Positions 19,488 through 27,314 of a stretch of DNA of 64,000 bases are shown one piece after another; the stretch's first letter is position 1; the number at the start of each line of letters is the position of its first letter. The notes under the pieces were generated by a model, which worked only from the letters and a program-made list of their open reading frames with translations, searched no databases and was not told the origin of the DNA. A program made the translations under genes and the position numbers. The stretch is from Bacteroidales bacterium (GTDB taxonomy: Bacteria; Bacteroidota; Bacteroidia; Bacteroidales; F082): NCBI GenBank assembly GCA_017460915.1, contig JAFUAA010000048.1, forward strand, positions 107,762-171,761, in the 5' to 3' direction.

Positions 19488-19615
19488 GGTACCGAAGACC
19501 GATACAAAACCAATATATCAAAGGAAATTAAGAGAAACAAAACGCAACAAAATCAAAGGATTATGAAATGCGTTTTTTCTCTTTATTGCTTATTTTTTCC
19601 TATTATCTGTTATTT

Positions 19616-19634
19616 TTTGCGCCCTATTTGCGCC
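19616..19634 (+). repeat. Left direct repeat, attL candidate
   Basis: TTTGCGCCCTATTTGCGCC, identical to 30850-30868. The unit itself is a tandem of TTTGCGCC separated by CTA. Located 77 bases before the integrase start. Confidence 0.75.
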
Positions 19635-19711
19635 TCGATGAAAATGAAGTAGTACCTTTGCAAACCAAAGGAAACCAAGAATTAGTTTCGTTGGAATTTG
19701 CACCCTATACT

Positions 19712-20782
19712 ATGGCGAAAAACAATGTTAAGGTAACGGACAACCCGAAATTGAAGCAGAAGAAGCTATCGGACGGCAATTTCTCCCTCTATCTTGAATA
19801 TTATCTCGGCTACAACAGTGAAGTCGATGAGGCGACGGGAAAGACCAAGGTAAGGGCCATCAGACGGAAAGAGTTCCTTGGACAGACCTTCTATGGCAAG
19901 CCAAGGACACCCATTGAGAGGGAGAACAACAGCAAGAACATTCAACTGGCACAGGAAATCAGGAAAGAACGTGAGCAGGAGTTTCTGAAGGACACGAGAG
20001 GCTACCGCTTGGAGAAAAGCAAGAACGTCGATTTTGTCTCGCTCTACCAGTCTTATATTGACCGATACACGAAATGCGATGTGCGTATGCTCAAGATGTC
20101 GCTCCGTTGGTTCAATGAGTTCATCGACACAACGCCTGAATACGAGAAGTACAGGAACGGAATCAAGCCGAGCCAAATCACCAAGGATATGATGGTTGAC
20201 TTTGCGGAGTTCCTCAAGTCCAGAGGGAACGGGGAAACGCCGAAGAGCGTGCTGCAACGTTTCAAGAAGGTGGTCAAGTGGGCGATTGAGCATGGCTATA
20301 TGGCCAACGACCCAACGGCGGGCGTGAGGATTGTCACAGACGAGCAGATACTGAGAAAGGACGTGCTTTCGACGGAGGAGGTGGTCAAGTTCATCAACAC
20401 GCACTACCAAGGCGAGAACCCAGAAATCCGCAGGGCTTTCATCTTCTGTTGCTATTGCGGCCTCCGCTTTTGCGATGTCAAGGACTTGACCTTTCGGAAC
20501 ATCGACTACTCCAACCGCCTCTTGAAGTTCGAACAGAACAAGACCAAGGGACACTCATCGAGCAGCGGCGAGACCATTCCGCTCAACGACGGCATCATAT
20601 CATTGTTGGGCAAGCCTGGGGTTGGCAAGGAGGACGATTTGGTGTTTCACCTGCCATCACACACCATGTGCTTGAAGGCTTTACGTCATTGGACGGCAAG
20701 GGCGGGCATCGCGAAGCACATCACATGGCCCAGATGGACGAGTGCGCCGAGGCGATATGCCGCGAGCTCGACCAGTTCGTAG
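19712..20782 (+). pseudogene. Tyrosine-recombinase integrase, C-terminal catalytic end lost
   Basis: Start at ATG 19712 (MAKNNVKVTD). Residues 1-90 form the arm-binding region, about 95-210 the SAM-like core-binding domain (YQSYIDRYTKCDVRMLKMSLRWFNEF), and the catalytic domain starts well: YCGLRFCDVKDL (first catalytic Arg) and the Lys region NKTKGHSSSSG. After RAGIAKHITW the expected C-ARHSFA box and the C-terminal Tyr are replaced by PRWTSAPRRYAASSTSS, which is read out of frame through another phage gene fragment. The break is at about 20728. With HxxR and the nucleophilic Tyr gone, the protein cannot recombine. Confidence 0.88.
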
Positions 20783-21010: not shown

Positions 21011-23638
21011 TCACTTCCCCCTGTTGTTTTTTATGAACTCACCATCCTTGAAAAACAGCCTCAGGCTCCCCTTCTCGTAAATCCATACCTCATCTATCTG
21101 CTGGTTGATGTGCAGACGTGCGGCGACGGCCTTCCTGATGAACCTATCCGAAGCTCCCTTGTTGTTGTCAATGATGATACGGCTCGACTGTTTCAGGCCG
21201 TGTGAGAGCATGTTGCTTATCTTCCGCTTGTTCCAAGGTCTCTCATAACTCTCGTACTCATAGAACAAGTCGCCGACGAGTATGTCAGGGCATTTCCTCT
21301 CGTATTTTGTCCCGACAAGGCTTCCGAACACTTCCTTGTAGGTTTCGCTCTTGAAGTGCGTCCGTGCAAGTATCTTGACGGTCTCGCCTTCCTTCGCAAA
21401 CAGCGTCGATATGGTTAGTATGTCCCTGTAGTCGGACTTGCCTTTATCAACACCTTCCATGATTTGTACGCTTCCTCCGTTGTCAAAGACCTTCCTTGTC
21501 GTGAAGATGGACGGCAATTCCTTTGCCGTGGGTGCGGCTGCCGGCACAATCGCAGTACCTTCGACTTTCCAGTACTGCTCGTTGTCCCGAAGGAAATACG
21601 GCAGCGTCTTCGCCCTCGCTATCCTGTCCTCGTTGTCAGCCACCCATTGCTTGAACTGGTCAGGAACATCGTGTACCGTGTTCACGCTCTCGTTGTTCTC
21701 TCCATTCTCCAAGTCGCGCCAAAACTCCTCGTCGGTCTTCAGGATGTAGGTGATGAAACAGCGGCAGTTGCTTCCCCAAAAACACTTTCCGTTGCGACGG
21801 ATGTACATTGTGTTGTTGCGCTCCAATGTTAAGTCATATACCATGCCGTCATAGTCCACGAAGTCCTTTTGGTATTGCGTAGCATATTGTGAACGGCACT
21901 CCGAAATCGTGATGCAATCGTAATTGATGGTGTAAACCCCATTCCTGAACTCTTGTTGTTTGCCTGCTGTGTGGCTTACATGGTAGGATGGTCTGTTGCC
22001 TGTTTTCAGAATCAATTCTCCGAGGTCACTTGCCATCCGTTTTGAAGATGTGCAATAAACTCTTTCGTCGTCTTTTGGCACACATAGATTTCCATGGCTT
22101 CCAACAAACGGTTTCGCTTTCTTGATATGGCCGTCGCATGAAATAAAAGCATCCAAGAACACGCGAATGCCCGTTTTGTCAGATTCCTTGATTTCTGAAG
22201 GCACAAACTTGTCTGCCGCCTTCCCGAACTGAGAAAGGTATTCGTACCAGTCCTTGTCGTTAAACTCTATCTTGCCTCCGTTATACCGTGGCTTCATTCC
22301 CATATCGGCAATGCAGTCGTAAATCCTTGCTCTGTCTTCGTCTTGTTGTGCTATTCCAACCTCATATCTATGACCGAGGCTTCCGTCTGAAAGCCAATAG
22401 CCCATGAATTTCGCAAACAAAGCAAATTTCACATCATGTGTTCCTATCTTGACTGAATCGATTTTCTTCCCTCTCCATTCCGAAGAACGGTAGATAGGTT
22501 GGCTCTTTCCGCATTGTTCTGCCTCGATACGCTTGAAAGTCCATCCGTCATTCTTCGACACTACAAGCACTTCGTGTTCTGGTGTGACAAGTTGGCTATA
22601 GGAACGGTTGTGTAAATGCACCATCTTTCCTTTATGTGGTCGGCTGATGTTAAGTGTTATTCCGACATATTCGAGGTCACGGGTTTCTGGATTAAGCGAA
22701 AGTATAAGGTCGTCGTCCTTCACATCTTTGAAGAACTTCCATCCGTCTGCGGTATAGACTTCGCTGTCGCTTGAATAACATTGGGGGTGCCAACCAACAA
22801 ACTTGAAGTTGCGCGGGTAATCCCCCTCCAACTCGTCGCAGATGTCGTAGAACTGTCCTTCGGGAACGCCTTTGCAATTATGGTTGTTGGAGAGGTTCAC
22901 GCGGATGCCCACGCAAGCGTCGAATTGCTGCGCCGTCTCGCAGTCGGACGAGCGGTAGGCCATGTTGATTTCGCTCCTTGCCAAACGCATGGCGTTCTTG
23001 TAGGCCGAGCGGTACTTGCCCGGTCCTGGGTGGAAAGCCGCCATCGCCTTGCTCATCCTTAGCTCGCCCGTCTCCTTGTCGCGCACGCGGCGAAACAAGA
23101 GGTCGGGGTCTTTGAGCAGGCTCCGTATGTCGCGGCTCAACGCATCAGCCGACTTGCCTTCGAGCAATGCCGTGTCGATGGCCGTCTCCATCTGCCGCTC
23201 AAAGTCTTCCGTATAATCCCATACCTTATCCGACAGCTTCAAGCCGCCTATCTTGCGTTTCTGGAAGGCTTCAAGGGCATCCATGTTTCGGCCTTTCATC
23301 TCAAGCATCTTGTCGAGGAAAAGGTCTTGCCGCTGCTGGGTCTGCTCCACGAGGTTATAGAGTTGGCTCAGGTACTCGGAGGCTTGCTCGCGGGCTGTTT
23401 CCCATTCCTTGCCTTCGGCCTGCACGGTGAGGTCGGTGATTTCCTTCGACAGTTCGCGCATCAGTTGCTCGGCCTCGGCTTTCATCTGCCTGTCGTCTGC
23501 AAACGAGAAGATGTGGTCGTCGGTGGCCTTGGTAATGCGTTTCCGCAGGCAGGGAGTCATCATCCGCGTTCCCGACTTCCCGACCCATCCCCGCACGTTG
23601 AGTTCCGACCCCGACGGGTATTTCAACCCCAATGCCAT
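21011..23638 (-). CDS. Phage minor head protein (Mu gpF / SPP1 gp7-like) interrupted by an intein
   Basis: 875 codons. N-extein residues 1-286 are helical and charged and end in the head-morphogenesis core (KYRSAYKNAMRLARSEINMAYR, VRVNLSNNHNCKG-like segment, GWHPQ). An intein occupies 287-624. The C-extein resumes with CRCFITYIL, so splicing would rebuild GWHPQ-CRCF, the conserved HPxCRC motif of gpF-like proteins. The last 140 residues (PDILVGDLFYEYESYERPWN, SHGLKQSSRIIIDN, EVWIYEKG) look like a separate nuclease/toxin-type domain, as in phage head proteins carrying CdiA- or BECR-like ends; this is an inference. Start at 23638 is tentative: the frame runs open further upstream, into the promoter and genes of the HigBA unit. 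It reads opposite to most element genes. Confidence 0.8.
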   Translation of the reverse strand: MALGLKYPSGSELNVRGWVGKSGTRMMTPCLRKRITKATDDHIFSFADDRQMKAEAEQLMRELSKEITDLTVQAEGKEWETAREQASEYLSQLYNLVEQTQQRQDLFLDKMLEMKGRNMDALEAFQKRKIGGLKLSDKVWDYTEDFERQMETAIDTALLEGKSADALSRDIRSLLKDPDLLFRRVRDKETGELRMSKAMAAFHPGPGKYRSAYKNAMRLARSEINMAYRSSDCETAQQFDACVGIRVNLSNNHNCKGVPEGQFYDICDELEGDYPRNFKFVGWHPQCYSSDSEVYTADGWKFFKDVKDDDLILSLNPETRDLEYVGITLNISRPHKGKMVHLHNRSYSQLVTPEHEVLVVSKNDGWTFKRIEAEQCGKSQPIYRSSEWRGKKIDSVKIGTHDVKFALFAKFMGYWLSDGSLGHRYEVGIAQQDEDRARIYDCIADMGMKPRYNGGKIEFNDKDWYEYLSQFGKAADKFVPSEIKESDKTGIRVFLDAFISCDGHIKKAKPFVGSHGNLCVPKDDERVYCTSSKRMASDLGELILKTGNRPSYHVSHTAGKQQEFRNGVYTINYDCITISECRSQYATQYQKDFVDYDGMVYDLTLERNNTMYIRRNGKCFWGSNCRCFITYILKTDEEFWRDLENGENNESVNTVHDVPDQFKQWVADNEDRIARAKTLPYFLRDNEQYWKVEGTAIVPAAAPTAKELPSIFTTRKVFDNGGSVQIMEGVDKGKSDYRDILTISTLFAKEGETVKILARTHFKSETYKEVFGSLVGTKYERKCPDILVGDLFYEYESYERPWNKRKISNMLSHGLKQSSRIIIDNNKGASDRFIRKAVAARLHINQQIDEVWIYEKGSLRLFFKDGEFIKNNRGK
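21767..22780 (-). other. Intein with LAGLIDADG homing endonuclease, 338 residues
   Basis: Begins with Cys1 in CYSSDSEVYTADGWKFFKDV (block A, Hint domain); block B is LVTPEHEVLVV with the usual T-x-x-H. The dodecapeptide endonuclease motifs are FAKFMGYWLSDGSLG and IRVFLDAFISCDGH. Block F/G is GMVYDLTLERNNTMYIRRNG...FWGSN, followed by Cys+1 of the C-extein. The terminal Asn is present; the usual penultimate His is Ser, as in some active inteins. No frameshift within it, so splicing competence looks intact. Confidence 0.9.
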
Positions 23639-23713
23639 TGAGTTCACGCGGCTGGGCTGACTGTCATTTGCACGAAAAATGGAAAAATGTTTTGCCGTTT
23701 GGAAATAATATTG

Positions 23714-23721
23714 TATCTTTG
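23714..23721 (+). promoter_or_regulatory. -7 box of the higB/higA unit
   Basis: TATCTTTG on the plus strand, 26 bases before the toxin ATG at 23747. Confidence 0.6.
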
Positions 23722-23746
23722 TGCCGTCAACCAACAGAAATGCGAT

Positions 23747-24043
23747 ATGCGAGTATTCTCGAAAAGCACACTCGTAGAGTACTACACTGACCATCCGCTG
23801 GCGCAACAGCCCCTTCAGGACTGGTACGAGACCACGAAAAGGGCGGAATGGAAGAACCTCAACGACATCCGGGCGGTGTTCAACAACGTGGACTATGTGG
23901 GCAACGACCGCTATGTGTTCAACATCAAGGGCAACGACTACCGCCTTGTGGTGGTCATCCGTTTCTCCAAGGGACGGGTGTTCATCCGCTTCATTGGGAC
24001 GCACGCAGAGTACGACAAGATTACGGACATCAAAAACATTTGA
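23747..24043 (+). CDS. higB: HigB-type mRNA interferase toxin
   Basis: A 98-residue RelE-superfamily toxin of the HigB_toxin type: MRVFSKSTLVEYY, a central helix with PLQDWYETTKRAEWKNLNDIR, then the strand-rich core VFNIKGNDYRLVVVIRFSKGRVFIRFIGTHAEYDKI. These proteins cut mRNA on the ribosome; the conserved basic and aromatic residues of the last strands (RFIGTHAEYD) are in place. It precedes the antitoxin gene by 3 bases, the order typical for higBA. The start at 23747 follows a TAnnTTTG promoter and the SKSTL start usual for the family. The module may stabilise the decaying element. Confidence 0.88.
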   Translation: MRVFSKSTLVEYYTDHPLAQQPLQDWYETTKRAEWKNLNDIRAVFNNVDYVGNDRYVFNIKGNDYRLVVVIRFSKGRVFIRFIGTHAEYDKITDIKNI

Positions 24044-24046
24044 GAT

Positions 24047-24412
24047 ATGGCACAAATCAAGAGTGAGGCGGCGTATCGAGCCGCGTTGAAACGAATCGAC
24101 GAACTCCTTCCGCTGACGGGTGACGACGTTCCCGACGACGACCCGAATATGCTGGAGATGGATATGCTTTGCGACATGGTGGAGGAGTACGAGGACATCC
24201 ACTATCCCGTGGGCAAGCCGGAACTGGCCGACGTCATCAAGCTCCGCATGTACGAGCGCAGCCTTACACAGGCAGCCGTGGCGCAGCTCCTTGGCATTAG
24301 CCAGTCGAGGATGAGCGAGTTGATGCACGGCAAGATGGAGCCGTCCTACCAACTATCCCGCAACCTCTGCACCAAGCTCAACATCGAGCCTTCGGTGGTG
24401 CTGGGCGTGTGA
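24047..24412 (+). CDS. higA: HigA-type antitoxin, XRE helix-turn-helix
   Basis: A 121-residue antitoxin. The N-terminal half is acidic (LPLTGDDVPDDDPNMLEMDML), likely contacting the toxin, and the C-terminal half carries the DNA-binding HTH (LADVIKLRMYERSLTQAAVAQLLGISQSRMSELMHGK). It probably neutralises HigB and represses the pair. Intact, with no frameshift, in contrast to several neighbours in the element. Confidence 0.88.
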   Translation: MAQIKSEAAYRAALKRIDELLPLTGDDVPDDDPNMLEMDMLCDMVEEYEDIHYPVGKPELADVIKLRMYERSLTQAAVAQLLGISQSRMSELMHGKMEPSYQLSRNLCTKLNIEPSVVLGV

Positions 24413-25453: not shown

Positions 25454-25781
25454 ATGAACAAGAAAGAGACATTGAGAGACATTATGACGATGGCTTGGGC
25501 TTTCGTCAAGCGCAACGGCTACACGATGAGCGAGGCACTGAAGACCGCCTGGCGCAACATCAAACTGAAGGCTGCGATGGCGAAGCGCATCTGCAAGTTC
25601 TACTTTCAGAAAGTGGACGGCACCATTAGAGAGGCTTTCGGCACATTGAACGCCGCCTTTGCCTGCCACCGCTGGCGACGACAACCGCCGCAAGAACGAC
25701 ACGGTACAGGTCTATTTCGACACCGAGAAGCAAGAATGGCGTTGCTACAAGCGCGCAAACCTTATCAGAATCGAACTTTAA
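25454..25781 (+). pseudogene. SH3-fold phage protein gene (DUF2693-like) with +1 frameshift
   Basis: The first frame encodes MNKKETLRDIMTMAWAFVKR... to GTLNAAF (about residue 70). From about 25660 the sensible protein continues one base over, as PATAGDDNRRKNDTVQVYFD then TEKQEWRCYKRANLIRIEL and a stop at 25779-25781. The joined product resembles the small SH3-barrel proteins common in Bacteroidales phages and conjugative elements, where an N-terminal helix precedes a strand-rich end. The unshifted frame instead runs to 25792 with a composition unlike a real protein. One surplus base is the simplest explanation; a sequencing error cannot be excluded. Confidence 0.7.
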
Positions 25782-25793
25782 CACTAACCTAAA

Positions 25794-26729
25794 ATGAACG
25801 CTGCCATGAAATCATTGAACGAACAAATTGAAGAGGTGATGGCCTCCGCAAAGTCACCGAGGGCAAAGAGAGACGACCTTGTGAAAACCGGCCTCAAAGA
25901 ACGGGACATCGACATGCTTTTCTTCGCTTCGAGGATGGGCGCAAAGTACGGCAAGAAGGTTGCCCAACTCTTTTCCAGTTACACCTTCGGCGTTGAGATT
26001 GAGTGCTTCAACGCGCCGCGCCAACTCCTTCTTTCCGCTGCCTACCGCCAAGGGCTTGCGATGCGAAGCGAATCATACAACCACACCGACAACCGCCACT
26101 ACTACAAGCTGGTGCAAGACGGCTCCATCCGTGGCAACGACCCAGTCGAGTGTGTTTCCCCCATCTTGCAAGGTGACAACACGGGCTTCGACAGCCTCAA
26201 AGCCTGTTGCGATGCGCTCAACGAGATTGGCGCAAGCGTGAACAAGTCAACGGGGCTGCATATCCATGTGGGTGGCAACATCACCGAACAGCAATATTGC
26301 AACACCTTCGTCAACTACTATTACCTTGAAAGCGTCATAGACACCTTCATGGCACCGAGCCGCAAGGATGCCTACTATGCAAGCTCGATGCACAACACGG
26401 CAAACGGACGCTATTTCAATCCCTATACATTGCTTGGTGCAAATACCTTTGAGCAGGTGGGCAACGCTTTCCGCAACGACCGCTATTTCAAAATCAACTG
26501 TGAATCGTGGTCGCGCCATCACACGATAGAGTTCCGTCTGCACGGCGGCACGACCAACTACGAGAAAATCAAGATGTGGGCTTTGTTCTGCCTTAAATTG
26601 GTGGCGTGGTCAGCCGAAAACAGGCTTTCAAGCGAAGTTACCACAATCGACAACATACCCTTTCTTGACGAAACCGAAAAGACCTATTTCAAGCAGCGTT
26701 CAAGCGATTTGCAGAGGGTGGCGGCATAA
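25794..26729 (+). CDS. Amidoligase family enzyme (glutamine-synthetase-like fold)
   Basis: A 311-residue protein of the Amidoligase_2 class (COOH-NH2 ligases related to glutamine synthetase and gamma-glutamylcysteine ligase). Motifs: YTFGVEIECFN (about 61-71, metal-binding Glu pair), DPVECVSPIL, the HIHVGG motif, and HHTIEFRLHGGT near the end. Such enzymes form amide bonds using ATP. The next gene is a class II glutamine amidotransferase, a pairing described for amidoligases of phages and mobile elements and taken to supply ammonia or to act on the same peptide. The target is unknown. An alternative start is ATG 25806. Confidence 0.85.
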   Translation: MNAAMKSLNEQIEEVMASAKSPRAKRDDLVKTGLKERDIDMLFFASRMGAKYGKKVAQLFSSYTFGVEIECFNAPRQLLLSAAYRQGLAMRSESYNHTDNRHYYKLVQDGSIRGNDPVECVSPILQGDNTGFDSLKACCDALNEIGASVNKSTGLHIHVGGNITEQQYCNTFVNYYYLESVIDTFMAPSRKDAYYASSMHNTANGRYFNPYTLLGANTFEQVGNAFRNDRYFKINCESWSRHHTIEFRLHGGTTNYEKIKMWALFCLKLVAWSAENRLSSEVTTIDNIPFLDETEKTYFKQRSSDLQRVAA

Positions 26730-26792
26730 GTACCCTTTGCAGCCGCAAAGAGCCGCAAAACGAACAAAAACAGCTTCAAAATCAACAATACT

Positions 26793-27314
26793 ATGTGTGT
26801 AATCATCTACAAACCCGAAAACCAACCTTTGCCCGACATTGAGACCCTTGCGGTTTGTTACCGCCGTAACAGGCACGGCATGGGCTTTTGCACCTCAAAC
26901 GGCACAATCCGTCATACTATGAGCTTCAGCCGGTTTTGCTCCGAATTGGGCAAGGTGGACGAGAGCGAAGCAATCATCATGCACTTCCGCTTGGCCACAC
27001 ACGGCTCCATCGGCGTGAAGAACTGCCATCCGTTCCAAGACAAGGCGCACGGTCTTTTCTTCGCCCACAACGGCGTTTTGCCCATCGAGGCAACGAGAGA
27101 CCGCACCGACAGCGAGACTTGGTTCAGAGACCATTTCCTCCCCATGCTCGATCGCTACGGATGGGACAGCAAGACCCTTTGGGATTGGGTGAACGTTGAA
27201 CGAGGCGCAAGCCGTTTCATCTTCATGCGAGGCAAAGAGGTGACAATGCTTGGCAGCTGGTTCAATATCAACGGCTGCTATTTCTCTAACTTGAATTGGA
27301 AAATCAATTATTAA
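26793..27314 (+). CDS. Class II glutamine amidotransferase (Ntn)
   Basis: A 173-residue single-domain Ntn amidotransferase. It begins MCVIIYKP, so Cys2 becomes the N-terminal nucleophile after Met removal. Further marks: RNRHGMGFC, HFRLATHGS, NCHPFQ and FAHNGVL, matching the glutaminase site of GlmS/PurF-type enzymes. It lacks any synthase domain and probably works with the amidoligase upstream, 63 bases away in the same direction. Full length, no disruption. Confidence 0.88.
   Translation: MCVIIYKPENQPLPDIETLAVCYRRNRHGMGFCTSNGTIRHTMSFSRFCSELGKVDESEAIIMHFRLATHGSIGVKNCHPFQDKAHGLFFAHNGVLPIEATRDRTDSETWFRDHFLPMLDRYGWDSKTLWDWVNVERGASRFIFMRGKEVTMLGSWFNINGCYFSNLNWKINY

What the first reader, a model, noticed from the sequence alone, without database searches (positions are those of the whole stretch)
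21767..22780. Intein with homing endonuclease at the HPxCRC motif of a prophage head protein
A 338-residue intein, with Cys1, TxxH block B, two LAGLIDADG motifs and a terminal Asn followed by Cys+1, lies exactly between GWHPQ and CRCF of a gpF/gp7-like protein. Inteins favour conserved active or structural motifs; minor head proteins are a rare host in Bacteroidota as far as I know. The intein is intact in an element whose other genes are decaying, which fits selfish persistence. The penultimate residue is Ser instead of His.
Basis: partly seen in the sequence, partly recalled or inferred. Interest (0 to 1): 0.8.

Follow-up and report, generated by a model that had tools for sequence, protein, structure and literature searches.

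The report
Mobile intein in phage head-toxin gene
A self-splicing selfish protein element with its own DNA-cutting domain sits in a phage head gene that also carries a toxin-like end; it is an ordinary kind of element, but its exact insertion site is shared by many related elements in viruses sampled from the environment.

Summary
Confirmed. Window 21767-22780 (-) is a 338-residue class 1 intein with a two-motif LAGLIDADG endonuclease, set exactly between GWHPQ and CRC of a MuF (gpF/gp7-like) protein. Profile hits are below curated cut-offs, but an AlphaFold model (pLDDT 89) matches intein-endonuclease structures, and the nearest intein-free homologue (L131) aligns through the junction without gap or overlap.

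Corrections: the host resembles a Bxa-type MuF polymorphic toxin (C-terminal domain weakly CdiA_C-like). It is orphaned and apparently 5'-truncated in a deletion relic whose integrase lost its catalytic end. The penultimate Ser is no oddity: 0 of 76 related inteins have His there. However, this copy also lacks the block F His that its seven nearest relatives keep.

The site is not unique. Of 76 related inteins, 31 sit at the MuF HPx|C site (26 supported by family match or near-identity, 5 by junction motif only), close to one clade. MuF gene trees reject a single intein-bearing clade; of 80 close relatives 77 are empty, 2 occupied, 1 cut off. Inteins in head proteins were in print in 2004 and 2020. 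New member of a known kind; the recurrent site-bound lineage is the interesting part.

The parts
21767..22780 (-). Intein, 338 residues: Hint splicing domain with embedded two-motif LAGLIDADG endonuclease
   Evidence: boundaries; profiles, below cut-offs; model and PDB matches; tree
22778..22780 (-). Block A nucleophile Cys1 (TGT)
   Evidence: Sequence; C in 76 of 76
22574..22585 (-). Block B T66-P-E-H69
   Evidence: T in 69 and H in 75 of 76
22382..22408 (-). LAGLIDADG motif 1 (FMGYWLSDG, acid D132)
   Evidence: D or E in 75 of 76
22130..22159 (-). LAGLIDADG motif 2 (FLDAFISCDG, acid D216)
   Evidence: D in 76 of 76
21767..21853 (-). Blocks F and G (YDGMVYDLTLERNNTMYIRRNGKCFWGSN): block F Asp316 present, block F His replaced by Asn323, penultimate Ser337, terminal Asn338
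21764..21766 (-). Cys+1 (TGC), first residue of the C-extein
22781..23540 (-). N-extein: MuF (gpF/gp7-like) domain, Bxa-type, apparently lacking its native N-terminus (end approximate)
   Evidence: phrog_7625 head morphogenesis 3e-45 and phrog_16625 Bxa 1e-44 for the N-part; 62% identical to L131
21011..21766 (-). C-extein: MuF tail, linker and C-terminal toxin-type domain (about 21014-21496), to the stop codon
   Evidence: CdiA_C E 0.0015, below cut-off; domain 76% identical to that of the G089 MuF protein; phrog_19194 2e-48
23547..23660 (+). 3' tail of a convergent gene, joined to the truncated 5' end of the MuF gene (deletion joint near 23540, inferred)
   Evidence: Match to the C-terminus of an ORF in L025; the first ~40 residues of the MuF frame align poorly, by eye, with 14 relatives
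19568..20730 (+). Tyrosine recombinase (integrase) that breaks off before its catalytic C-terminus; the open frame runs on to 20782
   Evidence: Pfam Phage_int_SAM_5 1e-13; DNA relatives 85-86% identical stop matching at window 20729 and continue into the catalytic end

Best explanation
A mobile class 1 intein of a lineage that homes into the HPx|C motif of phage MuF proteins. Mechanism: the precursor is translated as one chain; Cys1, the TxxH His, terminal Asn338 and Cys+1 drive excision and ligation of GWHPQ to CRCF (inferred from conserved residues). The LAGLIDADG domain cuts empty MuF genes at the conserved DNA encoding GWHPQ-CRC, and repair from the occupied copy inserts the intein (inferred from tree incongruence, sporadic occupancy and target conservation). 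It entered a Bxa-type MuF gene of a temperate phage, of Bacteroidota by its relatives. The prophage then lost most of its genome by deletion, leaving an orphan, 5'-truncated MuF-intein-toxin frame that is probably little or not expressed (inferred).
For: Exact junction and catalytic residues. Fold. Gap-free empty homologue L131, which is also the sister of the window's MuF in the gene tree, 100/100. The intein falls in a starred clade of 8, all MuF-site, inside a starred 100/100 clade of 34 of which 31 are MuF-site; 3 label changes against 24.3 in shuffles. One clade of MuF-site inteins is not rejected (p-AU 0.32), while one clade of intein-bearing MuF genes is rejected (p-AU 2e-7). Occupancy 2 of 80 (77 empty, 1 cut; dereplicated 2 of 54). 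The most conserved 24-nt stretch of the MuF gene (first of 954 windows, 51 empty genes) spans the insertion point, 15 nt before to 9 nt after; the exactly centred window ranks 7th. Intein GC3 0.50 against 0.78 and 0.70 in the flanks.
Against: No splicing or cutting was tested. Curated HMM cut-offs are not reached. Block F His is Asn here, with no penultimate His either, so Asn cyclisation could be slow. Incongruent trees can also arise from repeated loss, and on the MuF tree intein presence is somewhat clustered (7 changes; shuffles average 9.4, 4 of 500 as low). Intein identity to six near relatives (46-52%) only modestly exceeds N-extein identity (33-45%), so no recent transfer is seen.
Confidence: 0.88

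Rival explanations
1. A dying copy: an intein that no longer splices well, kept open in frame only because the deletion that orphaned the gene is recent.
For: Block F His lacking only in this member of its clade of 8, and the penultimate residue is Ser; the host gene lacks a native start and the terminase-portal neighbours that G089 has; integrase broken.
Against: All nucleophiles, block B and both endonuclease acids are present over 338 open codons; 8 of 76 family members, the window included, have Asn at that block F position; mycobacteriophage inteins with Gly, Lys or Ser at the penultimate position are reported and a Gly one splices (PMC5050341, passages).
Confidence: 0.3
2. Old vertical inheritance with many losses: MuF genes once carried the intein and most lost it.
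For: The MuF-site inteins are compatible with one clade; counts of changes cannot tell loss from gain, and presence is somewhat clustered on the MuF tree.
Against: 77 of 80 close relatives are empty; occupied genes are scattered, including a window-L131 sister pair with one occupied and one empty.
Confidence: 0.1
3. The intein is a regulatory switch that holds back completion of the conserved Cys/His motif of MuF, or of the MuF-toxin chain, until conditions allow splicing.
For: It splits the conserved C..C...H..C.C region, and occupied MuF proteins carry toxin-type ends of three kinds (window CdiA_C-like; L053 Gln_amidase; L054 and L057 ADPrib_exo_Tox). The 2004 M. capsulatus paper suggested that its F intein, if functional, could regulate head morphogenesis (PMC517821).
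Against: 77 of 80 relatives are empty, 65 of these 77 with more than 150 residues after the site (domains not scanned), and 8 of 30 occupied MuF proteins have only 9-34 residues after the intein, so no link with toxins is seen.
Confidence: 0.05
4. Not an intein but an unrelated in-frame domain insertion or assembly error.
For: HMM hits below curated cut-offs.
Against: Fold matches to inteins, catalytic residues conserved across 76 sequences, and the same junction in independent contigs.
Confidence: 0.01

Closest known systems
Intein in F (Mu gp30) of the Mu-like prophage of Methylococcus capsulatus Bath (PMC517821, passages seen)
   Same: Intein inside a gpF-type head protein of a prophage
   Different: Described there as lacking a recognisable endonuclease and most similar to archaeal IF-2 inteins; its exact insertion point was not compared here
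Intein in the minor head protein of cryoconite phage variant AB09 (PMC7468147, passages seen)
   Same: Intein with a homing endonuclease in a minor head protein, seen there as a variable island
   Different: Sequence and site not fetched; one sentence in the passages seen
MuF-site inteins of IMG/VR contigs, nearest L051 (51.6% identical), L052, L053, L054, L057, L068
   Same: Same insertion point, same GSN end, same domain order, Bxa-type MuF host
   Different: They keep the block F His; of their C-parts that were scanned, L053, L054 and L057 carry other toxin-type domains, L051 and L068 gave no match, L052 was not scanned
Bxa and other MuF polymorphic toxins of Bacteroidales prophages (PMC11699363, passages; PMC5576092, passages)
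   Same: Host architecture: MuF N-part plus variable C-terminal toxin-type domain
   Different: No intein there: the word was counted 0 times in both
TliVMA intein (7qsu) and PI-SceI / PI-PfuI
   Same: Hint plus LAGLIDADG fold
   Different: 9-15% sequence identity in the structural alignments; cellular hosts (recalled)

Membership tests
Class 1 intein | Nucleophile Cys/Ser at position 1 | tested here: met
   Cys1; C in 76 of 76
Class 1 intein | Block B TxxH | tested here: met
   T66-P-E-H69
Class 1 intein | Terminal Asn and Cys/Ser/Thr at +1 | tested here: met
   Asn338, Cys+1
Class 1 intein | Penultimate His (usual, not obligatory) | tested here: not met
   Ser337; none of the 76 related inteins has His there; phage inteins without it are reported and one was shown to splice (PMC5050341)
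Class 1 intein | Block F His that can stand in for it | tested here: not met
   Asn323; His in 57 of 76
Class 1 intein | Hint fold | tested here: met
Class 1 intein | Flanks meet without gap in insert-free homologues | tested here: met
   L131, pieces aligned apart; abutting matches in G009 and G042
Class 1 intein | Protein splicing occurs | not testable with these tools
   Needs expression
LAGLIDADG homing endonuclease | Two motifs, each with an acid | tested here: met
   D132, D216
LAGLIDADG homing endonuclease | Cuts the empty site | not testable with these tools
   Only indirect: target conservation and sporadic occupancy
MuF (gpF/gp7) protein | MuF domain | tested here: met
   phrog_7625 3e-45, phrog_115 3e-15 for the N-extein; Pfam, PF04233 included, gave no hit for it at 0.01
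MuF polymorphic toxin | C-terminal toxin domain shared with other toxins | tested here: inconclusive
   CdiA_C E 0.0015, below cut-off; 4 of 7 aligned members match, the window included; the whole C-part of the G089 protein gave no Pfam hit at 0.01; no PDB match
MuF polymorphic toxin | Gene beside terminase and portal genes | tested here: not met
   Scanned neighbours are an integrase remnant, a HigB/HTH pair, an HTH protein and others, no terminase or portal; G089 has terminase, portal and MuF in a row
MuF polymorphic toxin | Immunity gene next to the toxin | not tested
   Small frames near the stop codon were listed but no immunity family was searched

The most novel reading that the evidence does not exclude
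The HPx|C motif of MuF proteins is a standing 'address' for one intein lineage across many uncultivated tailed phages, and in toxin-bearing MuF proteins splicing works as a post-translational gate: the capsid-targeting part and the toxin are not joined in final form until the intein leaves.
Probability: 0.06. Interest if true: 0.75.

Novelty: new member of a known kind. Interest (0 to 1): 0.4.

Why it matters
By mechanism it is an ordinary intein. What could matter is the pattern it exposes: an intein lineage bound to one motif of a variable phage head/toxin gene family, with empty and occupied alleles among close relatives. That would give a natural system for measuring intein homing between phages, and a set of native inteins of which none in 76 has the penultimate His. 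Among the intein relatives listed from 50,697 deposited phage records, none was seen at this site (flanks read); many rows were not shown and a few unannotated or 'hypothetical' hosts were not read.

Tried and rejected
Same-site claim for Desulfovibrio phage 7757 (the match ran into the flank): rejected; the host is a head maturation protease with an unrelated NHPS motif.

A link between the intein and toxin fusions: not supported.

The other gpF-like gene of this genome (C22, L001) as an intein-free paralogue: too distant; it belongs to a Mu-like head module beside a portal gene. P0001 finds only itself in the genome.

(MuF tree) had the window row out of frame through my slicing error; one search repeats it correctly and only one search is used. 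The toxin-type domain was not folded: an alignment would have needed rows that the folding tool says it does not take, so it was not sent.

Of the 31 'MuF-site' rows, 26 are supported: 25 by a head-protein family match of their own N-part (window; 6 of 10; 10 of 10; 8 of the 9 that are in the tree) and L055, whose last 60 flank residues equal those of L054. Five (L060, L076, L080, L093, L116) rest on the junction motif alone: L060 and L080 have short flanks, L076 matches only families of unknown function, L093 had no match at 1e-4, L116 none at 0.01. Left out of the intein tree: L069, L077, L097, L109, L117, L119, L121, L130 (truncated or odd ends), exact duplicates L063, L084, L102, L006, and L003-L005, L009, L011 and L034 of the first scans, which were not entered. 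L155 was left out of the MuF tree (cut).

Print searches: (listings); passages seen; no paper was read whole. Only PMC517821 and PMC7468147 were found to mention an intein in a gpF or minor head protein. The name 'MupF' for the former is recalled and was not found.

Full report
What is there. On the minus strand a frame open from 24352 to 21011 carries a MuF-type protein interrupted between GWHPQ and CRCF by 338 residues, window 21767-22780. The insert begins with Cys, has TPEH in block B, FMGYWLSDG and FLDAFISCDG as LAGLIDADG motifs, and ends in Ser-Asn before Cys+1. Pfam and NCBIfam hits (Intein_splicing, LAGLIDADG_3, intein_Nterm) are all below curated cut-offs, so I looked for independent proof. 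tblastn finds relatives over residues 1-338 inside phage genes annotated as thymidylate synthase, large terminase and ribonucleotide reductase. A model from nine aligned inteins has pLDDT 89 and pTM 0.86, and its best PDB matches are the TliVMA, PhoVMA, PI-PfuI and PI-SceI intein-endonucleases.

The junction. The nearest intein-free homologue is L131, from a 51.6-kb viral contig. Aligned separately, the window's N-part (62% identity) ends at L131 residue 298 (GWHPQ) and the C-part (72%) starts at residue 299 (CRCF). In the genus, 4 of 98 other genomes matched the N-part (G009, G020, G042, G089) and all four show the uninterrupted motif; none of the 98 gave an intein match at E <= 0.001. Many of these genomes are incomplete.

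The host. The N-part matches head-morphogenesis families and the Bxa family (phrog_7625 3e-45; phrog_16625 1e-44), though Pfam gave it no hit. The C-terminal domain weakly resembles CdiA_C (E 0.0015, below cut-off; 4 of 7 members of its alignment match, the window included) and is 76% identical to that of the G089 MuF protein, whose own C-part gave no Pfam hit at 0.01. In G089 the gene follows a terminase and a portal gene. MuF toxins of Bacteroidales are described in PMC11699363, and the MuF toxin family in PMC5576092 (passages). So the gene is of the MuF polymorphic-toxin type by resemblance; its toxicity is untested.

The surroundings. The MuF gene is an orphan: none of the scanned neighbours is a terminase or portal. 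Its first 40 or so residues align poorly, by eye, with 14 relatives, and the DNA there reads on the other strand as the tail of a gene also found in L025. The integrase stops matching its 85-86% identical relatives at 20729, before the catalytic end, into which three relatives continue (one of them, in G058, is itself frameshifted upstream). I read this as a deletion relic in which the native start of the MuF gene is gone.

The intein family. Many carry the intein at the same place, HPx|C. In a tree of 76 inteins, 31 are MuF-site (26 supported by family match or near-identity, 5 by junction motif). Leaving out the window, all 30 such rows have Cys at +1 and 29 have His at -3; of the 39 other rows of that scan 10 have Cys at +1 and none has His at -3. 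The window falls in a starred clade of 8, all MuF-site, within a starred clade of 34, 31 of them MuF-site; the label needs 3 changes against 24.3 in shuffles. A single clade of MuF-site inteins is not rejected (p-AU 0.32).

Mobility. In the MuF tree of 68 rows (10 occupied, chosen partly because occupied), the window is sister to empty L131 (100/100). The intein label needs 7 changes, of which starred branches force at least 4; it is somewhat clustered (shuffles average 9.4; 4 of 500 as low). One occupied clade is rejected (p-AU 2e-7). The most conserved 24-nt stretch among 954 in 51 empty genes spans the insertion point, 15 nt before to 9 nt after. The intein's GC3 (0.50) differs from its flanks (0.78, 0.70). 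These are the marks of homing, but gain and loss are not separated.

Active site. Across 76 inteins Cys1 and Asn are in all, the block B His in 75, and acids at the D132 and D216 positions in 75 and 76. No member has the penultimate His (Gly 62, Ser 14). The block F His is in 57; the window has Asn, while its seven nearest relatives have His. PMC5050341 reports that phage inteins often lack the penultimate His, that a Gly one splices, and that a block F His may stand in for it (passages). The window therefore lacks both, which makes slow or failed splicing possible.

What is known. An intein in F of a Mu-like prophage was reported in 2004 (PMC517821, passages), and one in a minor head protein of a cryoconite phage in 2020 (PMC7468147, passages). 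I found no further case in the listings of the other searches. Among deposited phage records, no listed relative was seen at this site (flanks read); many rows were not shown. The finding is a new member of a known kind, with a recurrent, site-bound lineage as its less expected side.

Noticed in passing
L013 5893-7644; L218 around 901-1977: Two inteins of the wider family sit in head maturation proteases just after GEL(N/D)HP(S/D), a different conserved HP motif, in a Desulfovibrio phage and a 484-kb uncultured phage.
   Followed up: partly
window 23687-24412 (+): HigB-like toxin and HTH partner pair directly beside the truncated MuF gene, in the opposite direction.
   Followed up: partly
window 25454-27314 (+): WYL_2-type, amidoligase and class II glutamine amidotransferase genes in a row, perhaps part of the same mobile element.
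   Followed up: no
L036 and L037 (G245, G293, same phylum): Intein relatives in a protein that reads, by eye, as a family B DNA polymerase; the insert appears to end in Gly-Gln instead of Asn before Ser.
   Followed up: no
L032, L033: Relatives in proteins that read, by eye, as anaerobic ribonucleotide reductases of archaeal MAGs, so the wider family crosses domains.
   Followed up: partly
L131 C-terminal part: The nearest empty MuF homologue also carries a CdiA_C-like end (E 6e-5, below cut-off), but blastp matches the window only over the first 64 residues of the C-extein.
   Followed up: partly
L001 970-2154: The genome has a second, Mu-like gpF gene with an uninterrupted CKC motif next to a portal gene.
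   Followed up: partly
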